Shown: one piece after another, positions 27,551-58,440 of the stretch
Position numbering within the stretch: position 1 is the stretch's first letter
Layout: each line of letters starts with the position of its first letter
NCBI GenBank assembly: GCA_905221605.1
Contig: CAJNDS010000428.1
Location: forward strand, 62,001-126,000
Source of the DNA: Symbiodinium natans
Lineage: Eukaryota; Sar; Dinophyceae; Suessiales; Symbiodiniaceae
Direction of reading: 5' to 3'
Length of the DNA stretch: 64,000 nucleotides
The notes under the pieces: generated by a model
Seen by the model: the letters and a program-made list of their open reading frames with translations, nothing else
Database searches by the model: none
What the model was told of the DNA's origin: nothing
Position numbers and translations under genes: made by a program

Positions 27551-28005
27551 AATAATATAGAAAGTAGGCTTATGGGGGGGGTTTTTTTTGAGCCAAAAAA
27601 GCGCTCCAAAACGCTCCAAAATGGCTCTATTAAGTGAGAGAGGTGTGAGAAGGTGTCCATTGCTAAAAAAAAAAACGCTCAACTTGGCTCCAAAACAGGA
27701 CCTTCAACCTGAGCAAGGAGAAGGTGTTCATTGCTGAAAAAAGCGCTCAACATGGCAAAAACAGCACCTTCGACCCGAGCAGGCTTATGGTTTTTTAAGC
27801 CAAAACGCTCAAAAAAAAAACGCTTTCTTCGACCGGAGCAGAATCGCAGCGCATGTATTTTTGGTGGAAAACGCTCAACTTGGCTCCAAAACAGTACCTC
27901 AACCTGAGTAAGTCTGCAGGGAGAAAGGTTTTAAAGCGGAAAAAAACGCTCAACTTCGCTGCAAAACCAGTCCCTTCTTGTCAAAAAACGGCCCATTTAT
28001 GATTC

Positions 28006-28080
28006 AATAATGACTCAATAATGACTCAATAATGATTCAAGATGGACTCAATCATGACTCAAATGATTCAATAATGACAC
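28006..28080. promoter_or_regulatory. 11-bp repeat with TGACTCA sites
   Basis: Units of CAATAATGACT and close variants repeat with an 11-bp period and contain three TGACTCA heptamers, the consensus for AP-1/GCN4-type bZIP proteins. The mirror copy is in the right inverted repeat near 57918-57992. Function as a binding array is inferred only. Confidence 0.3.
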
Positions 28081-28739
28081 AACAATGCAGGGCAGCAGTG
28101 GCAGGGCAGCAGAGCGGAGTGGCAGCAGTGGCAGGGCAGCAGGGTGGAGGGCAGGGCAGCAGTGGCAGGGCAGCGGTGTGGCGGAGTGGCAGGGCAGCAG
28201 TGGCAGGGCAGCAGGGCGGAGTGGCAGGGCAGCAGCAGTGATAGGGCAGCAGGGCGGAGTGGCAGAGCAGCAGCAGCAGAGTGGCAGAGGGGCTGCAAAG
28301 GTGGCAGGGCAAGCTGTGGCAAGGTAGAGTCGCCACAAGGTCGCCACAGGTCGCCACTGGGTCGCCACAGGGTCGCCACACGGTCGCCACTGATTCCGGA
28401 GTTCGCTCGATTTGATTCCGGGGCTCACTCGGTTTGATTCCGGCAGGGCAGCAGTGGCAGGGCAGCAGGGCAGCAGTGGCGGCAGGGCGGAATAGTAGCG
28501 GAATGGCAGAGCAGCAGGGCGGAGTGGCAGAGGGTCACAGCAGCAGGGCGGAGGCAGAGCAGCAGTGGCAGAGGCATGGCAGCAGTGCGGAGCGGGCAGG
28601 GTGGCAAGAGCAGTTGCATGGCAGCAGCAGTGCGGAGCGGGCAGCAGTGGCAGAGTGGCATGGCAGCAGCACGGAGCGGGCAGGCAGTGGCAGAGTGCAA
28701 TGCAGTGTGGCGGAGTGGCAGGGCAGCAGGGGCAGCAGT

Positions 28740-28838
28740 TGGAGAGCACACAGGTCGCCACAGGGTCGCCACAGGGTCGCCACAGGGTCGCCACAGGGTC
28801 GCCACAGGGTCGCCACAGGGTCGCCACTAGGTCGCCAC
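28740..28838. repeat. 11-bp satellite GGGTCGCCACA in the TIR
   Basis: Eight to nine head-to-tail units of GGGTCGCCACA are present, with a second shorter block at 28326-28392 and a third at 29285-29372. The inverted counterparts lie in the right TIR at about 57100-57182 and 57600-57660. Confidence 0.85.
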
Positions 28839-29071
28839 TCGGTTTGATTCCGGGGCTCACTCGGTTTGATTCCGGGCTGGCAGGCAGCAGTGGCAGGGCA
28901 GCAGTGGCAGGGCAGTGGCAGGGCAGCAGTGGCAGGGCAGCTTAGGCGGAATAGCAGTGGCAGGGCAGCAGCGGCAGGGCGGAGGCAGGGCGGCAGTGGC
29001 GGTGTGGCAGGGCAGCAGTGCAGAGTGGGGGTGGTAGGGCAGCAGTGGCAGGGCAGCAGTGGCAGGGCAGC

Positions 29072-29438
29072 AGTGGCAGCGTCGCGTTGTAACCGCGTTG
29101 TAATCGCGTTGTGACCGCGTTGCGACCGCGTTGTGACCGCGTTGTGACCGCGTTGTGACCGCGTTGTGACCGCGTTGCAGGCAATGACAAGGCAGCAGTG
29201 GCATGGCAGCAGGGCGGAGGCAGGGCAGCAGGGCGGAGGCAGGGCAGCACTGGCAGGGCAGCAGTGTGGCGGAGTGGCAGGGCAGGGTCGCCAAAAGGTC
29301 GCCACAGGTCGCCACTGGGTCGCCACAGGTCGCCACTGGGTCGCCACAGGGTCGCCGCAGGGTCGCCACTAGGTCGCCCTCGCAGACCCCAAGTATCTCT
29401 GTTCTGAGACGCTGCTTGCGAATCGACCGTCAGCGTCG
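29072..29438. repeat. Left-end-only satellite tract before the integrase
   Basis: This stretch has no counterpart at the right end. It begins with about nine units of the 11-bp repeat GTTGTGACCGC (about 29079-29178), returns to GGCAGGGCAGCAGT-type sequence, and ends in another GTCGCCACAGG block. The integrase start codon follows 60-70 bp later. Confidence 0.8.
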
Positions 29439-30515
29439 ATGGGATCAGACCCGGCGCTAAAGAAAGAGAGACGTGAAAAGATGGCTGAAGCCGATAGAAG
29501 ACGTGAGATCATCAGGCAGGTCTACACGAACCCTAGGACAGGTTTCGGGAACCTAGATCAAACTCTGCGGCAGGCTAGAGCTCGCGATCAAACAATCAGC
29601 CGAGGTGACGTGCGCCTGTTTCTTAACAACCTCATCGTGCGCCAAGACAGACCCGAAAGAGGGCACAACGGTTTCGTGCCTCCAGAGCCGATGTTTCAGC
29701 TGCAAGTGGACCTCGCTGATATGACGGCTTTCGCCCAAGGTCCGTACAAGTACATGCTCGTAGCGATCGACACTTTCAGCAAGAAGCTAACGGCAATACC
29801 AATGGCCAACAAAGACGCTGCCACCGCATCCAGAGCATGGGATCAAGTTGTCAAGGATCTCGGCATACCGCTAACGGTTTACAGCGATGACGGCAGCGAG
29901 TTCAAGCGTGAATTCAAGCAGAAGCTGGACTACTTCGACATCGACAAAGTAGTTTCTAGGGGGCATGCTACGGTAGTCGAACGAGCCATCAGGACCCTCA
30001 AAGAAGCACTCATCCGCAGGCTTACAGAAGGAGTGGGCAAAAGGAACCAATGGCATCTATTGCTACCCGATATCCTAGCGCAGTACAATGAAAACCCTCA
30101 CTCGACCACAGGCTACGCTCCAGACAAAGTGTATTACGATCCTGAAACTGCGGACAAGGCCTTGACCAGGATGAAGCGCAACGTCAAGATGAACGCGGGA
30201 CCGAGGCCTCAAATAGCGGTCGGAGATTTAGTTCGGGTTAGGGTTAAACCTATCGAGAGTAGGGGCGCTTACAGGGTTACGGAAGTAGCCTGGAGCGAAC
30301 GAGTCTACAGAATCGCCAGAATCGAAAACACAGACGGCGGACCCTACTTCTTCCTCGAGGGCTGGACCGGAGATAAGCTCGTGCGACGAGACCTGAGGAA
30401 AGTGGACTCCGAGGATCAAAGACGCAGATTCCCCATGCAATCGAGAGAGCAACGTGGAAGACAAGCCGCGCAAAACCGCAGACTACCCGCCCCGGGTCCC
30501 ATCGCTCCACCCTGA
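29439..30515 (+). CDS. DDE (rve-type) integrase
   Basis: The 358-residue protein is of the retroviral-type integrase used by Polinton/Maverick elements to insert the linear genome into host DNA. The core runs from about residue 85 to 235. The catalytic triad candidates are D91 in FQLQVDLADM, D150 in VYSDDGSEF and E181 in TVVERAIRTLKEAL. The NENPHSTTGYAP motif follows, as in this family. A basic beta-rich C-terminal region (VGDLVRVRV, then YRIARIE) corresponds to the SH3/chromo-like DNA-binding tail. No HHCC zinc finger is visible at the N-terminus. ATG at 29439 is the first in frame; Met15 (29481) is an alternative. It is the outermost gene, reading inward from the left TIR. Confidence 0.9.
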   Translation: MGSDPALKKERREKMAEADRRREIIRQVYTNPRTGFGNLDQTLRQARARDQTISRGDVRLFLNNLIVRQDRPERGHNGFVPPEPMFQLQVDLADMTAFAQGPYKYMLVAIDTFSKKLTAIPMANKDAATASRAWDQVVKDLGIPLTVYSDDGSEFKREFKQKLDYFDIDKVVSRGHATVVERAIRTLKEALIRRLTEGVGKRNQWHLLLPDILAQYNENPHSTTGYAPDKVYYDPETADKALTRMKRNVKMNAGPRPQIAVGDLVRVRVKPIESRGAYRVTEVAWSERVYRIARIENTDGGPYFFLEGWTGDKLVRRDLRKVDSEDQRRRFPMQSREQRGRQAAQNRRLPAPGPIAPP

Positions 30516-30979: not shown

Positions 30980-33900
30980 TCAGGACGATCGGAGGTAACT
31001 GGTGTTGTGCAACTTGCCCTTGAACTGCCCATCGCTCATCCTCTCGCGATGCAAGAAGCCAACCTCGCCATCCACGAAGCCGAGGATGTGGTTCATCAGG
31101 TGGAAGGCCGCCACATCGGAGCGCCCCTCGAAGCCGCGCTCGCCTCTTTGCAGCGCCGCCCAGCACGCTGCCCAGACGTCGTTGTTCTTGAAGTGCCCGA
31201 GCGGTCTGGAGCGATGCGAGTCGAGCTGCCAAGCCTTCGTGTTCAGTGCTGTGAGGCCTCGCTTCTGGATCTGCACGACCTCGTTCACGTGATGGCGACA
31301 GCCCAGGCGACAGAACTCGACCTTGTGCTCGCCACCGCTCTCCAAGATGGCTTTGTAAAGGTCGTGGTCCAGCTTCTTGCGCTCGCTCTTCGGAACGCCC
31401 TTGGCCCGCTCCTTGCTCTCGCCTTCTGTCTTGGAAAGCGAGTACATCTTCGGCGCCAGACCGACCCACTCGACGCCGTAGTGAGGAGCCAACTCGTCCG
31501 AGAAGTTGCCGAGCTCGCCAGCGCGACGAAGCGCCAGCTCTCGACTTTCCTCACACAACGGAGCCAGGTGCTCCTTCAGAGCGTCGCCCTTCGCATCGCC
31601 GGCCACGTCGAAGAAAGGAGCGGCGCCTCGCAAGTTGGCCTTAGCCAAGGCGATCTTCGGGTCTTGATCACTGAAGATCTGCAGGACGCTGCTGTCGGTG
31701 TCCCCACCAAGCCATCTCACGCGGCTCTGTTCGGGCTTCATGTCGCTCGAGTCATCCGCCGGGTCGATGCTCTTGAGAAGATCTCCGTCGAAAACACGGC
31801 GGATCCCGTAGTGCGCCTTCATCATCAGCAAGCGTGACTCCTCCAGCACCTTCCACCCTCCTTGGAGAAACGATCTCAAGACCTTCGCGTTGCCGGCCTT
31901 CTGCACATCGACGAAGGCCAAGAAAGCATGCTCCTCCACGATCTGCGGGTGGATGTCGAGCATGGCGGGCCCAGATGCGGCCTTTTGGAACTTCATGCCG
32001 TCTGTGTACACACGGGTGGTTCGAAAGCTTTCTTGGTTTTGCACCATTTTACCGTATTGCACATTGCCCGTGAGTTTTTGAACTTCCGCCTGCAGCTTGC
32101 GGCCGCTCTTCTTGTACTCACGACGGGTCTCCACGGTCTGGCGAACAAAGCTCCTCATGAATGCCCTGCAGCGAAAGACCACGCAGCTGCTAAAATCGAA
32201 GATTCGAACGTGGAGGTGCTCGGCGATGAACTTGAGGTAACGGATGTCCACTCCTTCCCTGACGTGCTTCCCCAGGTAAGGAACCAACTTAGGAGTCTCC
32301 GACACGACCTGGCCTTCCTGGATGAGAGACTGCGTGTAAGGACTGAGCTGCGATCTCTTCACGGGCATCTTGCAGACAGGAGCCCAATCAACGCAAGAGT
32401 GGCGAAACCAGGGAACATCGTACGTCACCTCGACCATGTAGCAAGCCTCCTCGTCGTCCCGTTCGTAGTCCACACGGTCAAAGAGCACGTCGAGGTAGCG
32501 CAGCCTCTCCTTCCTGGACGTGGGCAGCTCGACCCACTGACCGCCGTCGACTGGTAACGGCTTCTCCATGATGGAAGGATACATGCTGTTCACGTCGTAG
32601 AAGAGAATCCACGACTGCTCTCGAGCGGGATCGAAATCAGGCAGCATAGGGTGGTTGGCCGCAGCAAACGGCTGAGCGATGTGCCCGAGGCCTCCTCTGA
32701 TGTTCGCTTTGGTCAGCTCGTACACCCTCCGATCGGTCATGAGCCCGAGACCGAGTTCCTGACGAGGGCAGCACTTCCGCAGCATGGCGTCGTGACTCGC
32801 CGATGCGTGCGTGACGTACTGACAAGGGTCGAGCTGGAAGTGCTCCCAAAACGTGTCTCGATACCGCTCCATCACATCTCCCAATGCGAGGTCTGTCTGC
32901 AAATACGTGTCGTGAAATGCACCGAAGCTTTCGAACGAAGAACTCGACGATCTGCTTGACGGTCTCATATTTCTCCTCGGAGCACGCCTCGCCGGTGAGC
33001 GAGTTGTCGTAGGCCTCGCGAGGAAGCAAAGCAGGCCACGACCAACAAGCCGGATCGCAAAGAGCGTCGAATGGCATCGGTATTTTTTTGAGCAGCAACT
33101 CCCAAACCTTGGCCCGACGCTCGGACGTGCTCAGCTCCGCCTCCGCGAAGATGGGGTGGCGATGCGCCAACAGGGGAAACGCCTCGCTGGGATTCGAGCA
33201 GCTCGCCTTGCAGTCTTCGATCAAAGAGGCCAAGCTCGTCGGGAAAACGTTCAAGGAGTCGAGGAAACGCAGCGGTCCGAAAGACAGCATCAAACACTTC
33301 TCCCCGCTTTTCACCAGAGCGCCCAGCTTGATTTTGGAAAGGTCGCAACGCCAGGGATCGTAGCAGGTGTCGTCGTCCTCCTCCTCCTCGTTAACATCGC
33401 CCGAATCATCCGCTGATTCCGCTGCTCCTCCGAGGAGCGAGGCGATGTAGTCTTCGTTGCGCTCGTAACCCTTCTCGTGAGCCAGGAAGCGGAGCAAATA
33501 GTGAAAGTCGAACGAAGCCCCGTTGTGCATGTAGACGGGAATGCTTGTGGGCAGGCGTATCCCCAAGTTGCACGTGTTGCAAGCCGCGGCCTGGAACCTG
33601 CCAGTGCCGTGTTCGTGGTGGAGCACTTTGCGTTTGCTCCTGTCACTAACGTCGAACTGCACCCCGCAAATCTCGCACCTCTCGACGTAGTAGAAATGGC
33701 GTTGCAGCTCCTCCTGAGTCAGGCGACAGGGTGCGTTCGTGCGGATCCGCCACTCTCGGTACTCCTTGGCAAGCGCCAGAAGACAACGGAGGAAACACTC
33801 CACGATGCCAAACTCGCCAGACTCCTGGGTAGCCCGCTCTAGCCGGAGTCGATGTTCCGGGGGGATTTGGAAACCAGAGCGTCCGACGGCCATGTAGGCG

Positions 33901-35285
33901 AACGAGGCGACACGATCCTGTTTGGCTAGAACGTTCTGTCCGGAAAGAAGCTGAGGAGGCTTGGTGTTGAAGGTTTCGAAATCTGCGTAGCAAACACAGG
34001 GGTGGAAGGAAGCTGAAGGACCTGCTTTGTAGTGGAGAGTAGCGGTCTCTCTCCCCGGCATTTCCATCTTATCCGCCACACGTTTGCCCGGATCCTGCGA
34101 ACAAATCCTTCCAGACAAGTGCCTCCCGAGTGCCTCCGGACTCTTGAAGCTGGACATACATCGATGACACCTGTTCATGGAAACGTGGGTGTTCGGACGC
34201 TGGCTCTCCGGGAACGAGGAGCTGCGGCTGCTCGAGAGCATGTCGAAGTTATATATGAGGACGAAGTGGCCATCGTGAAGAAGTAGAAGCACCGTCCGCG
34301 TCGCCTGAGCCTCCGACGAAGGGGAGCGCACCGGCATGAGAAAGTAGAAGTTTTCATTTACCCACGGCACTCGCGACCACTGGTACACATAGATCTCCAC
34401 CAAGCCAGTGTTCCCCAGCTCAAACTTCTCGATGTCCTCGAAGGTAACGCCTTTTCCTCCCGGGAGCATGCTGAAGTCGATGATTTGTCCGTCCACATAA
34501 ACGGCGGCGGGATCCGAAAGTCGCATCCTCTTGCTAGGGCGTCCGCTCGCGAGGTTGTAGAAAGGCCGCCCTCTGCACTCGGAGACCTTTTTGCGATACT
34601 CATTGCCCCAATCGCGACAGCCCAGGAGATCGGCCATCACGCAGTAACGGAAACACAGGTTGTCGGCGTTCTTGGGGGACCAGAGCCCCTTCTTGCCGTG
34701 CTTCAAGAGCTCCGGCAACTCCTTCCAACAGCCTCCGGCGAAGTTCGCACCAGGCGCCGCAGGAAGCTGAGCGAGCTCCCGGCTCGGCGTCGTGAAGATC
34801 TGCATGTCGAGGATGCCTTCGAACTTCTGGAGCGAATTGTGGAACCTTGCGTGTTCCAGACGATCTTCAAGAGTCCTCCGAGCCAGAGTCACGATGTAAC
34901 GACGAAGCCTCTCGTCCGGATCAGCCAGCGGACGAACCAGCGAAGGCACGGTGGCGATGCGACGTTCGCTGTAAACGATCTCCCGCTCCCCAGTCGCGGG
35001 ATCCACGACTTCCTCCGAAAGGCGGATGCGCAGGATGATCTTGACCATGAAGGGAAGCTGTGTGACCAGCAGGTCCTGCAGAGAACCATACGCCCGTGTC
35101 AGACTCTCCACATTCAAGTACTGACCAGGCGGAGGATCCAAGAAGATTTGACGCATCCAGAAGGTGTTTTGCCGAGGATTCAAGCTTCGAACCCTAGCCG
35201 CTGCAGGAGGAGCCTCCACGACTCGAGGCTGGTCGAGAGGCACCGCCCTCTGATGGTTCATGAGCAGCAAGAAGGCTTCCGCCAT
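30980..35285 (-). CDS. polB: Protein-primed family-B DNA polymerase (pPolB), split by a 1-nt frameshift
   Basis: Replicative polymerase of the element, about 1,430 codons. The upstream frame (ATG at 35285) has a Polinton-type N-terminal module (KNADNLCFRYC near residue 206, FEDIEKFELGN near 282) and a zinc finger (C373, C376, H389, C395). It then has exonuclease motif I (YADFETF, D435/E437), the family's embedded Cys/His cluster (C537-C540, HHEHGTG, CNTC) and exonuclease motif II (HNGASFD, N588/D593). It reads correctly to EFFVR (about 32932). One extra A in the minus-strand run CGAAAG shifts the frame. The downstream frame continues SFGAFHDTYLQTD and holds motif A (YDVNSMYPSIM), motif B (KLTGNVQYGKM), motif C (GGDTDSS) and a KxY-type thumb motif (PKMYSLSK). 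All catalytic residues are present. The break could be an inactivating mutation, a sequencing error or, less likely, programmed +1 shifting. Confidence 0.92.
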
Positions 35286-38582: not shown

Positions 38583-39173
38583 TTAGAAGGGGCACATTAG
38601 CGCGACCGGCTCCTTGAGCATAAGGTCCGTGACTTCAAACAAGACACCGCACGCGTTCGTCATGAGCCAGAGCTGTCGCAGTTCGCACTTTACCTTACAC
38701 TCCCTGCCCGCGAGGTTCCCTGGATCCTTCACAACCTCGCCTAGCGCGCCCCAGATGCGCACACGCTGCCAATCCATCTTCACCCTCAGAAAGGAACCGC
38801 CCCGGGAGTTCGCCTTAATGCACGATTGCAATCGCTCTAGGACCTCCGACTGTGTTAAGGACTTGCCGAAGATTCGGCCGTCCGTGGTCGTGAGGTCGGA
38901 AACACTTCGAGCTAGATGTCGTTCGACCTCCTGAAGCTGACTCTTCGTCCCCTCGTCGAGTTCGAGGCAGAGGTCCACACGCCTAGCCTCCGGGTCATTG
39001 AAGGCACTCGGGTGCCAAATGATCTTCTGCCAATCGCTGGAAGTCCAAACCGGCGGGCTGCTACCCTGTCCGCGAAGGGGGAAGAACTTCCCGCCCCGAG
39101 CATTGAATGTCAAATCGCCGAGTTCGATAGCCAGGCTGCAGGGTTTGCTCTGCGTTTCAGGCTTCTCGCTCAT
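38583..39173 (-). CDS. Possible single-stranded DNA-binding protein
   Basis: The 196-residue protein (ATG 39173) has a mixed alpha/beta look, without signal peptide or membrane segment. The C-terminal part (CKVKCELRQLWLMTNACGVL and then FEVTDLML) resembles a motif I associate with OB-fold-like ssDNA-binding proteins of large eukaryotic DNA viruses: beta strand, L-W-x-M/N, then x-x-x-G-V-x-x-x-V. Such a protein is expected beside a protein-primed polymerase. The assignment rests on pattern similarity only. It is divergently placed from the methyltransferase gene, 135 bp away. Confidence 0.3.
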   Translation of the reverse strand: MSEKPETQSKPCSLAIELGDLTFNARGGKFFPLRGQGSSPPVWTSSDWQKIIWHPSAFNDPEARRVDLCLELDEGTKSQLQEVERHLARSVSDLTTTDGRIFGKSLTQSEVLERLQSCIKANSRGGSFLRVKMDWQRVRIWGALGEVVKDPGNLAGRECKVKCELRQLWLMTNACGVLFEVTDLMLKEPVALMCPF

Positions 39174-39308: not shown

Positions 39309-39959
39309 ATGCCCCGGTTGCTGGAGCTGTTCAGTGGGACGGGCAGCATCGGCCGTGCCTTCGCGGCTCGTGGGTGGCTGGTAACGAGTCTTGACAGCAA
39401 CCCAAAGGTCGACCCCACCGTTTGCTGCGACATCCAGCAATGGGACTACAAAACCTTCGAACCCGGGCATTTCGACATGATCTGGGCCTCGCCCTGTTGC
39501 ACCGAGTTCAGCATCGCCCTCAAGAAGCGCCCCCGCAACCTGCCGGTCGGGGACGCCCTGGTGCTCAAGACGTTCGAGATCATCGACTACCTCAAGCCCA
39601 AGTGGTGGGCCATCGAGAACCCGAGCACCGGGCGCCTGAAAACCCGCCCCTACATGCAAGGACTGCACATGGACCGGGTCACGTACTGCAAGTACGGCTT
39701 CCGGTACAAGAAGCCCACCGCGGTGTGGCACAACCTGCCCTGGACCCCCTCCCAGGGGCCCTGCCGCAAGGGCGACCGCTGCGAGGCCTTCCAAGGCACC
39801 CGGCACCCAGAGGCCGCACAGCGAGGGCCCACCAAGGGGCGGAAGGGGAGCAACTCGCGGGACCAGCTCTACTCCATCCCGCCTGCGCTGTGCGACGAGA
39901 TCGCCGCGAGCGCAACACTTGGGTTAAATGGGCAAGGTGCGTCTCTTCAAGACGCCTGA
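39309..39959 (+). CDS. C5 cytosine DNA methyltransferase (DCM-like)
   Basis: The 216-residue protein transfers methyl from S-adenosylmethionine to C5 of cytosine in DNA. Motif I for SAM binding is LLELFSGTGSIG (residues 4-15). Motif IV with the catalytic cysteine is SPCCTEFS, with Cys replacing the usual Gln of PCQ. The motif VI-like ENP is in WWAIENPSTG. The C-terminal IPPALCDEIAAS matches the family's last conserved element, so the short length reflects a small target-recognition domain rather than truncation. It opens the rightward cluster and its last 32 bp overlap the ATPase start. Function could be self-protection, mimicry of host methylation or regulation; none is shown. Confidence 0.75.
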   Translation: MPRLLELFSGTGSIGRAFAARGWLVTSLDSNPKVDPTVCCDIQQWDYKTFEPGHFDMIWASPCCTEFSIALKKRPRNLPVGDALVLKTFEIIDYLKPKWWAIENPSTGRLKTRPYMQGLHMDRVTYCKYGFRYKKPTAVWHNLPWTPSQGPCRKGDRCEAFQGTRHPEAAQRGPTKGRKGSNSRDQLYSIPPALCDEIAASATLGLNGQGASLQDA

Positions 39960-42075: not shown

Positions 42076-42237
42076 ATGATGCCCTTCCCTGAGAAGCGCA
42101 ACGAGGCCGCGATGTTGCGGGCGTTTCACAAGCAGTATCCCAGCTACAACTTGACGCCGATGCTCTACAAGCGGCAGCAACAATTGATCGATGCTCGGGC
42201 CTTTCTTTCTTTCGGACGCACTGTGAGTCACAGTTAG
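42076..42237 (+). pseudogene. 5' part of a small virion-module gene cut by the LINE
   Basis: ATG at 42076 opens MMPFPEKRNEAAMLRAFHKQ and reaches LIDARAF at the left target duplication (42190-42203). Beyond 42203 the frame runs into LINE 3' tail sequence and stops at 42237. The continuation is at 49822. The uninterrupted gene would encode about 110 residues. It has no family I recognise. Confidence 0.75.
42190..42203. repeat. LINE target-site duplication, left copy (14 bp)
   Basis: GATGCTCGGGCCTT occurs here and again at 49808-49821, exactly flanking the LINE. Both copies lie in the same codon phase of the disrupted gene (D-A-R-A). Confidence 0.92.
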
Positions 42238-42355
42238 CGATAGTCTGAGCAGGTCGTGTTGACCCGGCAGTTCGTGACTGCAACCTTCGGCTCTCAACAG
42301 GAAAACGGCCCCGCGGCGTACCGCAAAGCAAGCCTGCAGCAAAACAGGACAAGGA

Positions 42356-45930: not shown

Positions 45931-48900
45931 GTACAGTTCGCAGCTGACTCGGACCTCACGACAATGCGAGAAGGCTCGCAGCAAGGCATGAGCTCCTTCT
46001 CTACGAGGAAGATACGCCATTTGAGGAGCTGTCGAGGCATATGCCAGGACAAATGGTTTCAGCCTTTGCGAGAGAATTTTGAGCACTGCCTTTCCTCCCA
46101 TACACTGAAGCCCTATGGGTCTTAGAGCCTCCGGCCTCTTGATCTTCTTGGCCGATTTGACCAGCAATGTAAGCCACGCGTCCTTCCAGATCGAGGGGAT
46201 ATCAAGAGCTCCCGGCTGCAAAACACGACAAAGACATGCATGTAAATGAGGAGCAACAAGATCAGAGCAAGTTCGCCAGACCATTCCAGAAGCACAGTGA
46301 GCAGGAACGGCCTTCGCCATCGGGGCATGTTTCAGCGCCATTTCCACCTCCTGAACAGTGATCAAATGTTCTGACTTTCCTGCGGCGGTCTCAGGAAAAC
46401 CTGTATTTTGCCCTCCATAGTGGGGGCCGCATGGAATCTCTACTAGAGACTTAAGAGGGGCCTTGTAAGGGAGGGCCAAATAGGATCTGGAAGCGACTTC
46501 TCCAGCAGGCGGATCGACCTGCACTGGCGTGGTCTGGGTGTAAAAGAGATCGGTGTAGTAGGTCCGGAGTTCCTGGAGCTCCTGTGCCGGAGAGAGAAGG
46601 TTGCCATCAGCATCCCTAATTTGTATTCGACGACGATCCTCCTTGGGCGCCAGTTGCCGAACTACAGTGTAGAGACCCTTCATGTCATGTTTCTCCACTG
46701 CAAGCGCTGCCCGATTCAGATGTTGTTCAACGCGTGCCTTGCGGACTTCCCGGCTGGCCTTTTGCACCACTTTCCTCTGCTTCCTGAAGGCCACGAAATT
46801 CTTCCAGGCATTCCAAACTCCATTTGAAGAAAATTTAAATCGCCTCCAAAGATCCCATAGTGCTCTAATGGGTTTCTGCACCGATTCGTCTTCATGAAAG
46901 CAAGGATGAGCTTTCGGGAAGGAGTCCTTCCGGCACGCCCAGGTGGAGGCCTCGAAGAGAATGCCATTGAGCTGCTCAGCATCCACCTGTGGCTTGGAGT
47001 GAAGCTCTGAAACAACCCAAGCTCGCACGCGATCACGCGCGCTAGGATCCTCGGACAGGATCTTGGAGATGGTTCTCGCGTTTGGCGAGTTCTGGTTGCG
47101 GACCTTCCATGGACGATAGTTAGCAGGGATACTGGCTACCAGAGGGCGATGTTGACCGTCAAGCTTCCAGTCACCAATAGGGAACTCTGAGAAAGGCACG
47201 CATTGTTTTGAAATGGCATCGGAGGCCTCGATGGCCGTGATGACAAAGTCAATTTGAGTTTTTGCTTGTTGCATGGCATATGTGTGCATACGAGATCGAG
47301 GTCCCTGCCATGTATTCAATGCCACCAATCCACGCTGCTTCATAAGATCCAAGACACAGTGCATGTCCTCCGCCACCTGATGTCCATCACGCATGGAGAT
47401 TGCAGTGCCTACATGTGATTCATGCATCGGAAGCTGACCATTGAAGTCACCAGCAAGAAGGAGAAGATTACGCCGAGGACGAGCTTCCAGGGCCTTTGTC
47501 AGTTTACTCCAGATTTCACCACGACGCTTCATCAAATCCTTCTTTTCAGCTCTAGTATTCCAGGGGATTTGGTATATGTTAAGAAGATCAATGGCAACAT
47601 CACGCAGGCTCACACGAAGCTGCAGAAGGCGTCCTGGATGAAGAACGCTGTATGCAATATGGCTCGCCTTAGCAATTTTGGTGCAAACCATACAGAGAAC
47701 TCCCGCATATCTGGTTTCAGGATCACCGCTGTGTACAAAATGCCATCGAGGTGAGGACCACTCTGCATCATGGCCCCAATGTGTCTCCTGCAACATGACA
47801 ATGCTGATGTGAGACTGCTCTGGCTCATCCAGCCATACAAGGAATTCGTCCAGCATACCCGTTGAAAGTCCACCTGTATTCCATGTAAAAGCAAAAAGTC
47901 TGGGCCCATGACGAGATCTCAAGCATCGAGTCGATCGGGATTGCTCAGGCTCCTGATTTGCAGGGGGAAGCCGTTGACATTCAAGGGCATTACGAGTAAC
48001 CCAGCGACCTCTGTAAAAAGTCCCGCCTTTGTTTGCTGCCCTGTGAAGAGCCCTTCGGTATGCACGTTTGCGCACTCCATTGAGGGGTTCAGAACTGATT
48101 GATAAAGACCCACTGTGCTTTGCTGACCACGAAAAAGAAGCAGCTCGTACCTGGTTACTCGCAGCTCCAGATGATGCCGTGGGCGCACCATCAACCCTCA
48201 CACCTCCAACACATGGTATGAAAAGAAGAAGCATGATCAGGTACCCGATAGTGTTGGACCCGGACTTGGGACCGGGCTGGCTGAGAAGAATCGATAGCCC
48301 CGAGACTCCCCAAAGCATTGAACAAAACGCGGCGTTCCAAATACCAAAAGTGAAAATACAAGCACGAATAAAATTCATGTATCTAAGAGAAAAGCACAAA
48401 AGTAGGTAATCAAAACAGCGCCGGTCGTTCATGTATTCCATGGCAACATCCGCGTTCGGAGTCTGATAGTCATTGACCATCCTTCCAGAAGAGGAATGCG
48501 ACCCTTCGTCAGCTTCAAGATGCACAGGAACATTACAATCGGAGACAAAACTCTGGGCTTCAGAACTCGAGGGAGAAACAGCCGAACCGCCATGTTGCAT
48601 AGCAGCGCTCGTATCACACGCGCCCTGTCCATCCACTCCACGCGGCTCATGGTTGCAGCAACACGGTCGCCAATGGCATGAGAGACACGGTGTCACGGGC
48701 GCCTCATTACCCGCCGGGAACATCTCGGACTCCGTTGTCGTCAGGGACTCGATGCGTAGTAGACGTCGTAGCTTCCTGCCGAATTCTCTCCTGGCCTGAG
48801 CATGTACATTCAAAGGAAAGATTGCATGTGTCTCAGGAAGGTCGTCCATGTCTGAGGCAGAAGAGCTACTACGTCTTGCCTCATCCAGAGTCCTGCCCTC

Positions 48901-49635
48901 CCAGTTGTTGTCATAGGAAGGCTCAGTGTGTGCGCCGTCCGGCGCAGATCCAAACGTATCCTCAGCCACAAGCTCCAATGGGAAGTCCAAAAAGAGAGAA
49001 GCGCTGTTGCACTCTCCAGAAACTGCAGCCAGAGAAGACGAAGAAGCCGCCTGTGTCTCTCCGGTAACCACGCCTAGAGAAGGCGAAGATTCCTCAGGTA
49101 TTCCTCCAGAGATGGCATCCAGAGAAGGCAAAGGTGCTGCCTGTGTCTCTCCAGTAACTTCAGCCAGAAAAGATGAAAATGCCGTCTGGGTATCGCCAAA
49201 GACTATAGCCTGAAAAGGCGAAGATGCCGCCGGTATATCTCCATCCAGGGACAGAAAGCAAGTACATTCAGCCTGATCCTGAAAACACACTTCGCACATA
49301 GACTCGATGCATTCGCAAGGTGTTCGGAGGCATCCATAGCAAAAGTCATCAGCATCCATCTGCTGCAAAGATATTGGACCAGGGGTCACAGAAGTCTGCT
49401 CTGCATCTTGATTGACATTATCAGGCAAAGTTGAACCAGCACAGTAAGAACCAGGGTCTTGAACTTCCGGGATGTCCATGTCATATGCACAGATGCAGTT
49501 CCGCTGACAGCAGTCAGAACATGAGGTACTCGAGCACGCCTGTGCCCCATCGTCTCTCTCCAGCTCGCCAGCTTCAACGTTTGGAAAAATCGGCATCACA
49601 CACAGCAAGAAAAACAACGAATGTCCATGGCGCAT
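45877..49635 (-). pseudogene. LINE N-terminal region, AP endonuclease and RT fingers
   Basis: ATG at 49635 begins MRHGHSLFFLLCVMPIF, a hydrophobic start, followed by Cys-rich and acidic Ser-rich sequence with five 15-residue repeats. A second hydrophobic stretch lies near 48200-48390. The endonuclease spans about 47905-47130: RLFAFTWNTGG, MLQETHWG (acidic metal ligand), LLLAGDFNGQ, TQIDFVI and a terminal GQHRPLVASI. RT fingers follow (LTLLVKSAKKIKRPEALRPIG, about 46110-46175). The frame ends prematurely at 45877, and the RT core continues in the next frame with an overlap near 45.88-45.95 kb. Confidence 0.85.
49031..49255 (-). repeat. Five 45-bp tandem repeats inside the LINE coding region
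   Basis: AGAGAAGGCGAAG-type phrases recur at 49031, 49076, 49121, 49166 and 49211, exactly 45 bp apart. Each encodes a 15-residue unit resembling TGETQAASSSSLAAV. The exact 45-bp spacing keeps the reading frame. Confidence 0.85.
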
Positions 49636-49807
49636 GTTGGCAGCTACGACTGTCACTCCCAAGAAAACCCCAAACCAAGGGAACCCCCAAGACAAGCCCC
49701 GAAAAAGACCCCGAAAGCCCCGAAGAGGGAGGGGGGGGAGAAGAAACACAGGGCAGGAGAACCCAAGGGCCACCGCTTTTGGCAGCACGTTTTGAGCCAG
49801 GGTGCTT

Positions 49808-49821
49808 GATGCTCGGGCCTT
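49808..49821. repeat. LINE target-site duplication, right copy (14 bp)
   Basis: GATGCTCGGGCCTT, identical to 42190-42203. Confidence 0.92.
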
Positions 49822-50026
49822 CAACGAGTGGCTGGCCAACCGGCGGCAGCGCCAGGAGGGCGAGGCCTACGCGGACGAGCTGGGGCGCATGACCGACGCT
49901 GTTAATAGGAGGATCCCCCAGCTGAGGTGGGCCCCCGCAGAGCGAGCAGGCGTCCGCCGCGTGGCGCGCGATGTCGCTGCCGGGCGGAACACTAGCGACT
50001 CTGGGGTTTACGGCGGCTTGATGTAA
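49808..50026 (+). pseudogene. 3' part of the small virion-module gene cut by the LINE
   Basis: It resumes at DARAFNEWLANRRQRQEG and ends GVYGGLM before a stop at 50026, three bases before the next gene's ATG. It is basic and helical, with no recognised domain. Removing the LINE and one target copy restores one continuous frame, shown by the shared codon phase at both junctions. Confidence 0.75.
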
Positions 50027-50028
50027 AG

Positions 50029-51342
50029 ATGGAGGAGCGACGTGCGCACGGCTTCCGTGTCAGACCCTCCTACGGGCAGGTCCTGGGCTACATAGCTGAG
50101 GGCGAGCCCTTGCCCATCAATCTCCCGAACCGCAACGCCAGCATCCTGACTTCCTCGCATTTCTGGCTCGACGACTATCCGCAGAGCAGCGAGCCCGAGC
50201 CTGCCCCGCTGCCCCACACGACCGTGGACCCTGCAGCAGCCTACGAGGACGCCAACGAGGGCTACGATGGAGTGCCCTTCCCCCGCCGGGATTTTTTGCG
50301 CCCACGACCCTTCGACCTGGACAGCGAGTCTGATTTTGGGGCTGTGGACCCGGGCCAAGCTCTGAGAAACGACGGGCTGGAGCCGCCAGCACCGCCAAGC
50401 TTCTTGAGCCGACTGCAGCAGGCCGAGGCCGCGGCGGGAGCTGCGGCGGGACTGGCGGGCTCTGCATCTGCCATCGCGGGGCACGGACAGGACCTCTACA
50501 ACGCCGCGCGCAGGGGGCGCAATTGGATCGACCGGAACCTGCGCATCCCGCGCACACCCGAGGGCCTTGCACCCCCGCCGGACGAAGTAGCTCCGCCGCA
50601 AATTATAGGCCGGCCCAGCGAAGTGGAGCCGCTTCTGGAGCGGGCGGGACAGCGAGCCCAGGAGGTGGAAAGGGCTGCGGCCCGAGACATCGAGCAGTTC
50701 ATGAGCGAGCAGGTGGCCGAGGCCGAAACGACCGAAGGTTTTGCTTCCACCGCAGAAGTGGCTGCGGGGGCTGCAGAAGCGGCGGCGGCGGCGGAGGGGC
50801 CAGGAGCGTTGGCACTGTTTGGAGAGGCCGCGTTGGGCACAGCTGCGGGCATGGGAGCAGCAGCAGGAGGCCTCGCAGTGGCGGGCGGGGCAGCGGCGCT
50901 CGTGGGCACTGCGTGGGCGCTCCACGGGGGGATGGTGGCAGCAGAACACCTCCTAGGTTGGGGCGGAGGCGGAGGAACCGACACGGATGCTTCTCGCCCC
51001 AGCTCCGCGCCCGACATCCAGACCTTGAATGGCATGCAGGAGTTTGGGGCTGAGCAGCACTTCCAGCTCCAGGAGCAACGCCCGCCGCAGGCCTCACGGC
51101 GGACGCAGTTTTACCGCATGGACACCGACGGCGAATCGGAGCCGCGGGCCCAGCCGCCCCCCCGAGTGCAAGCTCGTCCCGCGAGGCCCACGCGTTTCCC
51201 CACAGGCCTGAACCCCGCTCCCTTGGCGCAATCCTCAGGCAGCGACTCCTCCCGCGGGCCTCGCATGCAGCGCCAGTCGCGCGCGGCACCGCCCCCTTCC
51301 TTCGAGGCGCTTCGCAGCGCGAGCGAGCCGGAGGCCGCATGA
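50029..51342 (+). CDS. Virion-associated protein candidate with Ala/Gly hydrophobic segments
   Basis: The N-terminal motif of this 437-residue protein (SYGQVLGYIAEGEPLPI, then NRNASILTSSHFW) resembles a short conserved block I associate with virion-module proteins of polinton-like viruses. Ala/Gly-rich hydrophobic stretches at about 128-150 and 245-310 could insert in membrane or act as amphipathic segments. The middle is acidic and Pro-rich, and the C-terminal third is Arg/Pro/Ser-rich and probably disordered. No enzyme motif was seen. It lies directly upstream of the major capsid gene (21 bp). A minor capsid, membrane or scaffold role is inferred from position. Confidence 0.55.
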   Translation: MEERRAHGFRVRPSYGQVLGYIAEGEPLPINLPNRNASILTSSHFWLDDYPQSSEPEPAPLPHTTVDPAAAYEDANEGYDGVPFPRRDFLRPRPFDLDSESDFGAVDPGQALRNDGLEPPAPPSFLSRLQQAEAAAGAAAGLAGSASAIAGHGQDLYNAARRGRNWIDRNLRIPRTPEGLAPPPDEVAPPQIIGRPSEVEPLLERAGQRAQEVERAAARDIEQFMSEQVAEAETTEGFASTAEVAAGAAEAAAAAEGPGALALFGEAALGTAAGMGAAAGGLAVAGGAAALVGTAWALHGGMVAAEHLLGWGGGGGTDTDASRPSSAPDIQTLNGMQEFGAEQHFQLQEQRPPQASRRTQFYRMDTDGESEPRAQPPPRVQARPARPTRFPTGLNPAPLAQSSGSDSSRGPRMQRQSRAAPPPSFEALRSASEPEAA

Positions 51343-51363: not shown

Positions 51364-52581
51364 ATGGAGCAAGTGACTGCTGCCGTGAACGACGAGCTCG
51401 TTCAGAGCCTCGACTACAAGCTCGCGACCTCAAACGTCAACTACGTGCTCTCTCGAGCGGACGTGACCTACCATCCATCGTCCCTCAGCGTCTTCACGCC
51501 CACGACATCGAGGGTGTGTCGCATTCCGTTGACAACAGCTTCTTCGTTCATCGATCCCGACAGCGTCAAGATCGGCTTCACGGTGCGGAACAACAGCACC
51601 ACGGGCACGCTGTTGCTCTCCTCGCCGGATCCCAGCTGTTTGGTGGACAGGGTAGAGGTCTTTGCCAACGGGACTCGCATTGAGGACATCAACTATTACA
51701 ATCGCTGCAGCTACCTCTACAGCCTGCTGAAGAACGAGGAGTGGTGGCTGAATCGTCACATCCAAGGCTTCCTCGCGGACGCCGGGGGCAACGCCGAGCC
51801 CATCGCGGCCGAGGGCTCCCGGCATGTCCTCTTTCCTCCTCATCTCGTAGGAATATTCAACGCGGGCAAGATGTTGCCCCCAGAGCTCAACCTTGTCCTA
51901 CAGATTACCTTCGCCGACCCAAATGATGGAGCCCGCGGCGTCAGCGCAAGCAAGGACTACACCATCGAGAACGTGAAGGTGTACGCTTCTCAGGCTCAAC
52001 TCGATTCCAGTTTGTACTCCTCGTTCCAGAGAATCATGACCAGCGGACGCAGTTTGGTGTTCAGCTTCCCGACCATGCACACGCAGCTCTCCAGCATTCC
52101 CGCCGGGAGCACGAGTTATAACATCACAACAGCACGTGCTTGGACGAAATTCATGGGGGCTTTCGTGACTTTCAACAAAACCACGAACGACCACGTGAAC
52201 AATTTCGAGTACGCAGGCAACAACGACAACCGCGACCTGAAGAGCCAGATGCAGCTCGGAAGTCTCCAATATCCCCGGACGGCGAACGAGAGCATTGCCG
52301 AGCATCATCATTATTTGGAAATTCTTGCAGGGACGATAGATAGCAAGGTCCGCAACATGCGAATTAGGGGCAACTTGTACGGGAACAACCAGTTCGTTGC
52401 AGCCTTCCCGACCGAGCGTGTGCCGGGCCACGCACTGTCTGCCGTGAGCACCAGATCCGGTGACCTTTGCCGCTTCTCTTTCAGCAATATGCTGCCGGAC
52501 CGAGTGGACCAGTGCTTCGTGCACCAAATTTCATACCAGCTCGTAACGTTGTCGGGCGCTGGGGTCAGTTCCCTCGACTAG
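51364..52581 (+). CDS. Major capsid protein, double-jelly-roll type
   Basis: This 405-residue, beta-rich protein has no signal peptide. Features that fit polinton-like-virus capsid proteins are an N-terminal strand region (YHPSSLSVFTPTTSRVCRIP), FIDPDSVKIGFTVRN, CLVDRVEVFANGTRIEDINY then YNRCSYLYSLL in the first barrel, and a second barrel from about residue 210 to the C-terminus (for example KVRNMRIRGNLYGNN and FVHQISYQLV). The length is slightly shorter than many family members. It would form trimeric capsomers. It lies 21 bp after the preceding gene and 3 bp before the fibre gene. Assignment is by pattern and context; a structure prediction would settle it. Confidence 0.7.
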   Translation: MEQVTAAVNDELVQSLDYKLATSNVNYVLSRADVTYHPSSLSVFTPTTSRVCRIPLTTASSFIDPDSVKIGFTVRNNSTTGTLLLSSPDPSCLVDRVEVFANGTRIEDINYYNRCSYLYSLLKNEEWWLNRHIQGFLADAGGNAEPIAAEGSRHVLFPPHLVGIFNAGKMLPPELNLVLQITFADPNDGARGVSASKDYTIENVKVYASQAQLDSSLYSSFQRIMTSGRSLVFSFPTMHTQLSSIPAGSTSYNITTARAWTKFMGAFVTFNKTTNDHVNNFEYAGNNDNRDLKSQMQLGSLQYPRTANESIAEHHHYLEILAGTIDSKVRNMRIRGNLYGNNQFVAAFPTERVPGHALSAVSTRSGDLCRFSFSNMLPDRVDQCFVHQISYQLVTLSGAGVSSLD

Positions 52582-56178: not shown

Positions 56179-56208
56179 GTTCTTTTTCATAGTTTTCATG
56201 CGATATAA

Positions 56209-56856
56209 ATGAGCTCCGAGCTGTCAGCTGCTTGCGAAGGCGTCATGCAAAATCCTTCTGAGGAAAATCTAGTTCGGCTGCTGGATTGTTGGTCGCCGGA
56301 ATGGAAGCATCGTGGGCGTCAACGAGGCATTGGCTCGGGATCATATGAGATTTACTGCACCCTGGGGCTTTACGCTTTTGGAGGCAATGCTCCCAGCATG
56401 TCAAAAGCTTCCGACGCGAAAGAAGCATGCATCGCGCTTAATCACTTCTTGCGCGATCGCATTCCGGATGGAAAATGGACCTCCCTCGCGGTTATTCTGA
56501 ACCCAAGCATCGGGCTTCACCGAGACATGGGAAATATGATCGGCATGCCGAACTACGCGATCGCGGTCGGACGATACACGGGAGGCAGAGTTTGGGTCGA
56601 AGATGACGAAGGCACTTCGCTTGATGAGGTGGTGATGAAAAAGAAAATGCATCGGCTTCGAGGCTGCTGGATCGACATGCACAACTGCTCAGTGTCGTTC
56701 AACGCCCGTCGATTCCATAAAGTCGAACCTCATGAAGGGCATATGTGGGCGATTGCAGCGTACACTCCCACGGCTTTTAGACGATGCTCCGATGAAAACC
56801 GCAAAGAATTGGCATGTTTGAATTTCCCTGTACCAGAAAGTGCCAACACAGATTGA
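56209..56856 (+). CDS. 2OG-Fe(II) oxygenase-like protein
   Basis: The 215-residue protein has a double-stranded-beta-helix pattern. LHRDMGN supplies the HxD metal pair (H104, D106). AIAVGRYTGGRVWVED is the usual central strand-turn-strand with GG. FHKVEPHEG supplies the distal His (H170), followed by AIAAYTP. In close-looking relatives the segment reads PWxGxR before the last strand, and the Arg would bind 2-oxoglutarate. Here that position is Met179, so the activity may differ or be lost. The order of motifs resembles oxygenase domains frequent in dinoflagellate genomes, including Tet/JBP-like ones, but the subfamily cannot be fixed. It is the last gene before the right TIR. Confidence 0.5.
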   Translation: MSSELSAACEGVMQNPSEENLVRLLDCWSPEWKHRGRQRGIGSGSYEIYCTLGLYAFGGNAPSMSKASDAKEACIALNHFLRDRIPDGKWTSLAVILNPSIGLHRDMGNMIGMPNYAIAVGRYTGGRVWVEDDEGTSLDEVVMKKKMHRLRGCWIDMHNCSVSFNARRFHKVEPHEGHMWAIAAYTPTAFRRCSDENRKELACLNFPVPESANTD

Positions 56857-56872
56857 CGAGTTGCCCTGCACA

Positions 56873-58440
56873 GCTGCCCTGCCACTGCTGCCCTGCCACT
56901 GCTGCCCTACCACCCCCACTCTGCACTGCTGCCCTGCACTGCCGCCCTGCCTCCGCCCTGCCGCTACTGCCCTGCCACTGCTATTCCGCCTAAGCTGCCC
57001 TGCCACTGCTGCCCTGCCACTGCCCTGCCACTGCTGCCCTGCCACTGCTGCCTGCCAGCCCGGAATCAAACCGAGTGAGCCCCGGAATCAAACCGAGTGG
57101 CGACCTAGTGGCGACCCTGTGGCGACCCTGTGGCGACCCTGTGGCGACCCTGTGGCGACCCTGTGGCGACCCTGTGGCGACCTGTGTGCTCTCCAACTGC
57201 TGCCCCTGCTGCCCTGCCACTCCGCCACACTGCTGCCCTGCCACTGCTGCCCTTGCCACCCTGCCCGCTCCGCACTGCTGCTCCCATTGCACTCTGCCAC
57301 TGCCTGCCCGCTCCGTGCTGCTGCCATGCCACTCTGCCACTGCTGCCCGCTCCGCACTGCTGCTGCCATGCAACTGCTGCTCTTGCCACCCTGCCCGCTC
57401 CGCACTGCTGCCATGCCTCTGCCACTGCTGCTCTGCCTCCGCCCTGCTGCTGTGACCCTCTGCCACTCCGCCCTGCTGCTCTGCCATTCCGCTACTATTC
57501 CGCCCTGCCGCCACTGCTGCCCTGCTGCCCTGCCACTGCTGCCCTGCCGGAATCAAACCGAGTGAGCCCCGGAATCAAACCGAGCGAACTCCGGAATCAG
57601 TGGCGACCGTGTGGCGACCCTGTGGCGACCCAGTGGCGACCTGTGGCGACCTTGTGGCGACTCTACCTTGCCACAGCTGCCCTGCCACCTTTGCAGCCCC
57701 TCTGCCACTCTGCTGCTGCTGCTCTGCCACTCCGCCCTGCTGCCCTATCACTGCTGCTGCCCTGCCACTCCGCCCTGCTGCCCTGCCACTGCTGCCCTGC
57801 CACTCCGCCACACCGCTGCCCTGCCACTGCTGCCCTGCCCTCCACCCTGCTGCCCTGCCACTGCTGCCACTCCGCTCTGCTGCCCTGCCACTGCTGCCCT
57901 GCATTGTTGTGTCATTATTGAATCATTTTGAGTCATGATTGAGTCATCTTGAATCATTATTGAGTCATTATTGAGTCATTATTGAATCATTAATGGGCCG
58001 TTTTTTGACAAGAAGGGACTGGTTTTGCAGCGAAGTTGAGCGTTTTTTTCCGCTTTAAAACCTTTCTCCCTGCAGACTTACTCAGGTTGAGGTACTGTTT
58101 TGGAGCCAAGTTGAGCGTTTTCCACCAAAAATACATGCGCTGCGATTCTGCTCCGGTCGAAGAAAGCGTTTTTTTTTTGAGCGTTTTGGCTTAAAAAACC
58201 ATAAGCCTGCTCGGGTCGAAGGTGCTGTTTTTGGAGCCATGTTGAGCGCTTTTTTCAGCAATGAACACCTTCTCCTTGCTCAGGTTGAAGGTCCTGTTTT
58301 GGAGCCAAGTTGAGCGTTTTTTTTTCAGCAATGGACACCTTCTCACACCTCTCTCACTCAAAAGAGCCATTTTGGAGCGTTTTGGAGCGCTTTTTTGGCT
58401 CAAAAAAAACCCCCCCCATAAGCCTACTTTCTATATTATT
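56873..58440 (-). repeat. Right terminal inverted repeat
   Basis: This is the inverse of 27551-29071. It is about 47 bp longer, because of extra low-complexity units near 57230-57300 and elsewhere. It starts 17 bp after the oxygenase stop codon. The two copies are close enough to suggest recent homogenisation or a young insertion, while repeat-number differences show they are not identical. Confidence 0.88.

What the first reader, a model, noticed from the sequence alone, without database searches (positions are those of the whole stretch)
27551..58440. Near-complete polinton-like virus integrated in a dinoflagellate-type genome
The sequence shows about 1.5-kb inverted repeats ending in the same AATAATATAG, flanking GTGTG direct repeats, and between them integrase, protein-primed PolB, packaging ATPase, capsid and penton candidates, a fibre, a methyltransferase and an oxygenase. 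Knowledge of Polintons/Mavericks and polinton-like viruses makes this combination diagnostic of an element able, at least in its ancestor, to form virions. The inference is a dinoflagellate-infecting lineage with its own accessory genes.
Basis: partly seen in the sequence, partly recalled or inferred. Interest (0 to 1): 0.92.

Follow-up and report, generated by a model that had tools for sequence, protein, structure and literature searches.

The report
Dinoflagellate endogenous polinton-like virus with nested retrotransposon
A virus of the polinton-like kind sits integrated in the genome of a Symbiodinium-like alga, with clean ends and a capsid gene that bears the marks of selection, but this copy is broken by a retrotransposon that landed inside it; such viruses are already known from dinoflagellates, so it is a good example rather than a surprise.

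Summary
The repeats are real. Arms of 1.53 and 1.58 kb bound 27551-58440, align at 95.0% with 7 mismatches, share their termini and are flanked by GTGTG. Profiles find an rve integrase, DNA_pol_B_2, a C5 methylase and an A32 ATPase. The capsid candidate has 195 relatives. In the window's own 759-Mb genome 26 of 127 matching rows are full-length without a stop. MCP dN/dS between copies is about 0.16. Gene order recurs in other copies.

It is flanked by a 14-bp duplication inside a small viral gene, and a relative shows the empty site. The polymerase lies in two frames. This copy is probably defective.

Further finding: TIR-sharing elements, one of 8,972 bp with its own 5-bp duplication and no detectable window gene. 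The double jelly-roll, penton and oxygenase labels stay untested: the structure machine was busy at all 21 attempts.

Verdict: real; a new member of a known kind.

The parts
27546..27550 (.). Target-site duplication GTGTG, left copy
27551..29079 (+). Left terminal inverted repeat (1,529 bp; terminus AATAATATAG; inner tandem 11- and 14-mers)
29439..30515 (+). rve-type integrase, 358 aa
   Evidence: Pfam rve 4.1e-13; weak retroviral integrase matches in PDB, best E 0.0017
32637..35285 (-). Protein-primed PolB, N-terminal piece (882 aa frame): putative terminal-protein region, vOTU-like Cys/His motifs, Endonuclease VII-like zinc region (below cut-off), ExoI and ExoII motifs
   Evidence: 70% to P0199 in alignment A3
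30980..32968 (-). Protein-primed PolB, C-terminal piece (662 aa frame): PolA, PolB, PolC motifs; in another frame than the N-terminal piece
   Evidence: DNA_pol_B_2 1.9e-15; 86% to P0199
36645..37358 (-). Lys/Glu/Ala-rich, coiled-coil-like protein (by eye), 237 aa, unknown
   Evidence: no family
38583..39173 (-). Unknown protein, 196 aa; relative at 46% in the same place of copy C756
   Evidence: (DUF5871 E 0.019, below cut-off)
39309..39959 (+). C5-cytosine DNA methyltransferase-like, 216 aa
   Evidence: Pfam DNA_methylase 1.3e-7; phrog_757 4.9e-17
39928..40734 (+). A32/FtsK-type packaging ATPase, 268 aa
   Evidence: Pox_A32 5.7e-6; phrog_2666 3.1e-9
40670..41644 (+). Penton / minor capsid candidate, 324 aa
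   Evidence: position and a 66% relative in the same place; fold not tested
41666..42073 (+). Pro/Ala-rich small protein, 135 aa
42076..42203 (+). First part of a small viral gene interrupted by the LINE (ends in the duplication)
42190..42203 (.). 14-bp duplication GATGCTCGGGCCTT, left copy
42204..49807 (-). Nested non-LTR retrotransposon (7,604 bp): endonuclease-like region and RT start in 45877-49839; RT remainder, zinc fingers and UCH/USP-like domain in 42356-45883
   Evidence: RVT_1 3.4e-10, UCH 6.6e-7; Exo_endo_phos 0.019, below cut-off; empty site in L031
49808..49821 (.). 14-bp duplication, right copy
49808..50028 (+). Second part of the interrupted small viral gene
50029..51342 (+). 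Conserved protein upstream of MCP, 437 aa, Ala/Gly-rich
   Evidence: beside MCP in L029-L031 and C1767 (only its C-terminal part in L031) and in 5 of 13 long gene models
51364..52581 (+). Major capsid protein candidate, 405 aa
52585..56178 (+). Fibre protein, 1,197 aa, C-terminal S74-like region
   Evidence: Peptidase_S74 E 0.16, below cut-off; relatives downstream of MCP
56209..56856 (+). Accessory protein, 215 aa, HxD...H motifs (2OG-Fe(II) oxygenase-like by motif only)
   Evidence: 94% relative beside fibre in C1767
56866..58440 (-). Right terminal inverted repeat (1,575 bp)
58441..58445 (.). Target-site duplication GTGTG, right copy

Best explanation
This is an endogenous polinton-like virus of the dinoflagellate lineage. 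Its rve integrase joined the ends of a linear viral DNA to host DNA with a 5-bp stagger (duplication observed; mechanism inferred from the integrase family). The lineage replicates with a TP-vOTU-Exo-Palm type pPolB, packages with an A32 ATPase and builds virions from the MCP with an S74-type fibre (inferred from families; virions not shown). The insertion is young by TIR identity (7 mismatches), provided gene conversion has not evened the arms. After insertion a LINE copied itself into a viral gene, and the polymerase now lies in two frames, so this copy is probably defective on its own. Many related copies, some with intact capsid frames, and TIR-only derivatives lie elsewhere in the same genome.
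For: TIRs and GTGTG duplication. Profile hits for integrase, polymerase, methylase and ATPase. 195 MCP relatives, 120 listed; of 6 listed with an organism name 5 are Symbiodinium. 127 MCP rows in the window's own genome, 26 of them residues 1-405 without a stop, the window included. 50029-type protein, MCP and fibre adjacent in 3 of 3 fetched ~81% copies, in L031 with only the end of the 50029-type protein before a rearranged stretch; oxygenase-like/fibre/MCP/50029-type protein in C1767; 196-aa/MTase/ATPase/penton/small gene in C756. MCP dN 0.18-0.20 against dS 1.1-1.3 for the window versus three copies, and 0.018 against 0.207 between two of them. A second insertion with the same ends has its own 5-bp duplication CCTTC. 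LINE empty site in L031: the two flank matches overlap by exactly 14 bases.
Against: The double jelly-roll fold was not tested; PDB and Pfam give nothing for the MCP. No maturation protease of the virus was recognised among 17 frames scanned. No relative in the viral-contig scans made, so an extracellular form is not seen. dN/dS between copies averages over the time before endogenisation and cannot say that the capsid is under selection in the genome now; dS is near saturation; against the metagenome contig L001 the ratio is higher, 0.52/1.40, about 0.37. MTase, ATPase and penton are much more diverged (53-66%) than MCP and fibre (81-87%) between the window and C756, which suggests mosaic copies rather than one simple lineage.
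Confidence: 0.92

Rival explanations
1. It is a Polinton/Maverick transposon that has given up the virion stage and moves only inside the genome by its integrase and polymerase; capsid genes are passengers.
For: High copy number in one genome, none found in the viral-contig scans, TIR-only derivatives that moved.
Against: Capsid dN/dS about 0.16 between subfamilies and 0.09 between two close copies; fibre and capsid kept together; a 4.9-kb metagenome contig with MCP and fibre in open frames, coverage 139 in its title, binned as an alphaproteobacterium.
Confidence: 0.25
2. Assembly chimera: two ends of different elements joined.
For: Repeats of this length can mislead assemblers.
Against: Arms nearly identical, with the same 5-bp duplication; an independent pair of arms with its own duplication at C169; gene order repeated in other contigs.
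Confidence: 0.03
3. The 56209 protein and the methyltransferase form a DNA-modification pair (5mC, or hydroxylated bases such as 5hmU) that marks the viral DNA.
For: Both lie in one element. Maverick repeats are the most strongly 5hmU-enriched class in Breviolum (PMC11071213, passages read). Conserved HxD...H.
Against: No TET/JBP or other 2OG model among the Pfam matches of 31 members; no significant PDB match (best E 0.74); the H-to-arginine spacing differs from my recollection of TET/JBP; no such gene found in 3.4 kb beyond the fibre in copy C756.
Confidence: 0.08

Closest known systems
'Dino' group of endogenous PLVs (Bellas et al. 2023, PMC10120064; sections 6, 7, 9 and passages read)
   Same: Dinoflagellate host, many MCP copies per genome (2,535 in Polarella). 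For the protist elements of that study in general: TIRs, rve or YR integrase, often pPolB, and a retrotransposon embedded in one PLV (Hydrurus).
   Different: Membership by MCP cluster could not be computed because their sequences were not at hand. The 56209 accessory protein is not named in what I read.
OmPLV of Oxyrrhis marina (PMC12721341; parts 1 and 3 of 7 and passages read)
   Same: About 25-kb endogenous PLV of a dinoflagellate with MCP, A32 ATPase, pPolB, TIRs and broken genes.
   Different: OmPLV has a tyrosine recombinase, no target duplication and a helicase-pPolB fusion. The window has an rve integrase, a 5-bp duplication and an Exo-containing pPolB in which no helicase was recognised.
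Classic Polintons/Mavericks (recalled; pPolB domain plan from PMC11071308, passages read)
   Same: rve integrase, long pPolB with vOTU-like N-terminus, A32 ATPase, TIRs, short target duplication.
   Different: No Ulp1-type protease recognised; organism-named capsid relatives are Symbiodinium plus one bacterial MAG contig.
Cryptophyte PLVs with rve integrase and S74 fibres (PMC12220804; passages and section 10 read)
   Same: rve with short duplications in some clusters, S74-tipped fibres, retrotransposons nested in PLVs.
   Different: Other hosts; not compared by sequence here.

Membership tests
Polinton-like virus / Polinton | Terminal inverted repeats of hundreds of bp or more | tested here: met
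   1,529/1,575 bp, 95.0%, 7 mismatches
Polinton-like virus / Polinton | Short target-site duplication typical of rve integrases (4-6 bp) | tested here: met
   GTGTG; CCTTC at a second copy
Polinton-like virus / Polinton | rve integrase | tested here: met
   Pfam 4.1e-13
Polinton-like virus / Polinton | Protein-primed PolB with Exo and Pol motifs | tested here: met
   Profile and relatives; motifs read by eye in two separate pieces; two frames in this copy; priming itself not testable
Polinton-like virus / Polinton | A32/FtsK packaging ATPase | tested here: met
   Pox_A32 5.7e-6
[quoted passage not shown]
   405-aa protein with conserved relatives and low dN/dS; structure machine busy at all 21 attempts. 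A crude propensity estimate gave 35% strand, 20% helix, which proves nothing. A DJR prediction for a Polarella MCP is reported in PMC12721341 (figure legend read).
Polinton-like virus / Polinton | Single jelly-roll penton | tested here: inconclusive
   Candidate 40670-41644; no Pfam or PHROG match; fold not run
Polinton (classic) | Ulp1/adenoviral-type maturation protease | tested here: not met
   None among 17 frames scanned with Pfam; remote versions could be missed
'Dino' PLV group | MCP falls in the Dino cluster of Bellas et al. | not testable with these tools
   Cluster sequences not held; 5 of 6 organism-named relatives are Symbiodinium
2OG-Fe(II) dioxygenase | Recognisable 2OG profile or DSBH fold | tested here: inconclusive
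   No 2OG profile for 31 members; fold not run; HxD...H conserved
Non-LTR retrotransposon (42204-49807) | RT, target duplication, empty site in relatives | tested here: met
   RVT_1 3.4e-10, 14-bp duplication, empty site

The most novel reading that the evidence does not exclude
The dinoflagellate PLV family carries its own satellites: elements of about 9-11 kb that keep the viral ends (about 1.7-kb arms in one case), have lost or never had the viral genes, and are moved, and perhaps packaged, by the enzymes of full-length copies. With the LINE nested in the window copy this would be a three-level chain of parasites in one algal genome.
Probability: 0.3. Interest if true: 0.65.

Novelty: new member of a known kind. 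Interest (0 to 1): 0.45.

Why it matters
Dinoflagellates have few described DNA viruses (so PMC12721341, part 1 read) and large, odd genomes. A well-delimited element with matching ends, young arms and many relatives in one 759-Mb assembly gives a concrete system for asking whether these elements still make particles, whether their ends are shared with satellites, and whether they take part in the 5hmU and chromatin-domain patterns reported for Maverick repeats in Breviolum (PMC11071213, passages read). A capsid dN/dS of about 0.16 between copies argues for spread by a route that needs the capsid. The kind itself is already described, so the general claim is not new.

Tried and rejected
Viral-contig scans with MCP (single and alignment), oxygenase-like alignment, ATPase, integrase and penton candidate gave no relative; the tool warns that records near the window's genome may be left out. 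Phage records: none for MCP. PDB sequence searches gave nothing for the MCP, the PolB C-terminal piece, the fibre tip or the LINE C-terminus, nothing significant for the oxygenase-like family, and weak matches for the integrase. NCBIfam gave only below-cut-off matches, the best IS481 transposase for the integrase, 5.5e-16. Exact contig-length matching linked 3 of 77 oxygenase-like clusters with 118 MCP clusters, 0.04 expected in a jitter control; kept as weak support because one contig can hold several elements. I considered a TET/JBP 5hmU writer for the 56209 protein and lowered it for lack of any profile. Ten flank frames gave no family above cut-off. Neither DNA nor protein of the element matched the window's flanks. 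Literature, listings only: polinton plus dioxygenase 3 papers; polinton plus DNA methyltransferase plus 5-methylcytosine 5; polinton plus dinoflagellate plus 5-hydroxymethyluracil 2 held, 1 listed, which I then cite from passages; dinoflagellate plus retrotransposon plus dioxygenase plus JBP 0; non-LTR retrotransposon with ubiquitin-specific protease or OTU terms 6, no title on such a LINE.
Full report
WHAT IS THERE. The window is bases 62001-126000 of contig C428 of an unnamed 759.4-Mb genome in 2,543 contigs. Between 27551 and 58440 lies one unit bounded by inverted repeats. The arms align end to end as 1,529 against 1,575 bp at 95.0%, with 7 mismatches and 9 gap openings; their inner parts are tandem 11- and 14-mers. 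Both termini read AATAATATAG, and GTGTG stands directly outside each. Five bases alone would match by chance about once in a thousand, but a second pair of the same ends in the same genome (C169, 8,972 bp) carries its own 5-bp duplication, CCTTC. A 5-bp duplication therefore appears to be a property of this family's integration.

GENES. Pfam finds rve (4.1e-13), DNA_pol_B_2 (1.9e-15), C5 DNA methylase (1.3e-7) and Pox_A32 (5.7e-6), all above their curated cut-offs. The polymerase lies in two overlapping frames. Each piece aligns with whole relatives of about 1,400 aa in single frames (for example P0199 from Symbiodinium microadriaticum, 1,413 aa, 73%, and P0201, 1,435 aa, a cluster of 61; 63 relatives in all, only the 8,000 best candidates scored). 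The pieces carry motifs that I recognise as ExoI (DFE), ExoII (NGASFDF), PolA (DVNSMYPS), PolB (NVQYGKM) and PolC (GGDTDSS), and an N-terminal Cys (CFRYC) and His (GHFVLI) that fit the vOTU domain described for polinton pPolB in PMC11071308 (passages read). The motif names are recalled, not computed. Whether the frame break is real or an assembly error is not known; PMC10120064 argues that many such breaks are assembly artefacts (section 7 read).

CAPSID. The 405-aa protein at 51364-52581 has 195 relatives at E up to 0.001, of which 120 are listed. Most listed are ENA entries without a name; of 6 with an organism name 5 are Symbiodinium species and one is an alphaproteobacterial MAG contig. 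In the own genome 127 rows match, a lower bound since 103 of 467 candidates were scored. By my count of the table 26 rows cover residues 1-405 without a stop: 21 at 79-100% (window included) and 5 at 58-59%. Some rows may be assembly duplicates (five on C1110, C1065 and C1806 share one score). C1767 holds a 97% relative in two pieces, other rows are fragments or carry stops, and about 16 further contigs hold frames of 469-556 aa matching in part at 27-32%, perhaps other PLV capsid families. Nei-Gojobori dN/dS of the MCP is about 0.16 between the window and three fetched copies (dN 0.18-0.20, dS 1.1-1.3), 0.16-0.18 between L029 and the other two, about 0.09 between L030 and L031 (0.018/0.207), and about 0.37 between the window and L001 (0.52/1.40). 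The larger dS values are near saturation, so those ratios are rough. Values well below 1 are what a gene used at each round of spread would show. The double jelly-roll fold itself was never tested: the structure machine was busy at all 21 attempts.

GENE ORDER. In 3 of 3 fetched ~81% copies (L029-L031) the 50029-type protein, MCP and fibre are adjacent in the same order; in L031 only the end of the 50029-type protein is there, and beyond it a rearranged stretch with penton, small gene and the start of a 50029-type protein runs the other way. In C1767 the order oxygenase-like, fibre, MCP, 50029-type protein recurs, at 94.1% DNA identity over 2,286 bp, 84.7% over 1,829 bp and 93.3% over 1,057 bp. 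C2059 has matching TIR, integrase remnant, fibre and oxygenase-like matches; C1786 has TIR, integrase (88-91%) and a polymerase piece (84%). In C756 the 196-aa protein, methylase, ATPase, penton candidate and small gene precede the 50029-type protein. Of 13 long gene models (440 aa or more) among the 120 listed MCP relatives, 5 carry part of the 50029-type protein and 4 carry fibre. Against a simple single lineage: between window and C756 the ATPase is 53%, the penton 66%, the methylase 60-65% and the 196-aa protein 46% identical, while MCP is 81% and fibre 82-87%; and no oxygenase-like gene was found in the 3.4 kb fetched beyond the C756 fibre, where a weak rve-like match (28%) lies instead. 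Recombination between lineages would explain both.

THE MISSED INSERTION. Bases 42204-49807 are a non-LTR retrotransposon on the minus strand, with RVT_1 (3.4e-10), a UCH/USP-like domain at its C-terminus (6.6e-7) and weak endonuclease matches below cut-off. Fourteen identical bases, GATGCTCGGGCCTT, flank it. In relative L031 the two flanks are contiguous: the left-flank match ends at 3929 and the right-flank match starts at 3916, an overlap of exactly those 14 bases; in L033 the two protein pieces also lie side by side, though the DNA matches stop short of the junction. The insertion lies inside a small viral gene between 42076 and 50028. A distant relative of most of the LINE, USP-like part included, stands in C2059 (25-45% in pieces), so this architecture is not unique to the window. 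Retrotransposons nested in PLVs are already reported (PMC12220804, PMC10120064).

SATELLITES. A 250-base terminal query gave 41 rows in the genome. Four contigs show facing ends 9-11 kb apart (C169, C454, C1336, C2071); in C1336 and C2071 one or both ends match only part of the query. I fetched regions at 8 TIR-bearing contigs. Window proteins match in 5 (C454 and C1336 shreds only; C1767, C1786, C2059 more) and not in 3 (C169, C2071, C1823; 14 proteins, two of them LINE). C169 (8,972 bp, arms 1,737/1,687 bp with 3 mismatches and 50 gap columns) shares about 92% of the outer 685 bp with the window. The simplest reading for C169 is that integrase acting in trans moved a gene-less derivative. 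Internal deletion after insertion, or genes too diverged to detect, are the plain alternatives, above all for C454 and C1336.

THE OXYGENASE LABEL. The 215-aa protein has 77 relatives. Across 31 aligned members H104, D106 and H170 are nearly invariant, as in 2OG-Fe(II) enzymes (recalled), but no 2OG profile is among the weak Pfam matches at E up to 10. The link to DNA hydroxylation is a guess. The Breviolum paper reports Maverick repeats as the class most enriched for 5hmU (passages read), which would make it worth testing.

VERDICT. Endogenous PLVs of dinoflagellates, their high copy number, S74 fibres in PLVs and nested retrotransposons are all in print (PMC10120064, PMC12721341, PMC12220804). 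This is a new, well-delimited member of a known kind.

Noticed in passing
42356-43246 (minus): A LINE with a C-terminal UCH/USP-like domain; Cys and GHY-type His regions seem present by eye. A relative with a similar layout stands at C2059:175025-181005. One literature search listed no title on it.
   Followed up: partly
L010 (C169:422986-431957): 8,972-bp element sharing viral ends, 5-bp duplication CCTTC, no window protein detected.
   Followed up: partly
L001 (JANSXV010000013.1): 4,921-bp contig with PLV MCP and fibre in open frames, coverage 139 in its title, binned in an alphaproteobacterial MAG; probably a dinoflagellate PLV contaminant.
   Followed up: partly
14877-21382: Host flank with several repeated blocks of 70-300 nt, 62-100% alike, in recurring order.
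   Followed up: no
C756, L032 and L033: ATPase, penton and methylase far more diverged than MCP and fibre: possible recombinant elements; rve-like match beyond the fibre.
   Followed up: partly
L031 (C269): MCP and fibre intact in order, but next to a stretch with penton, small gene and start of the 50029-type protein in the opposite direction: a rearranged copy.
   Followed up: partly
27999-29378 and 56862-58000: Inner parts of the TIRs and the stretch just inside the left one consist of 11- and 14-bp tandem repeats (GTCGCCACAGG, GCAGGGCAGCAGTG types).
   Followed up: no
35400-38550: Three kb with no clear gene apart from the 237-aa frame; the longest stop-free run is reached by 3 of 100 shuffles.
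   Followed up: no
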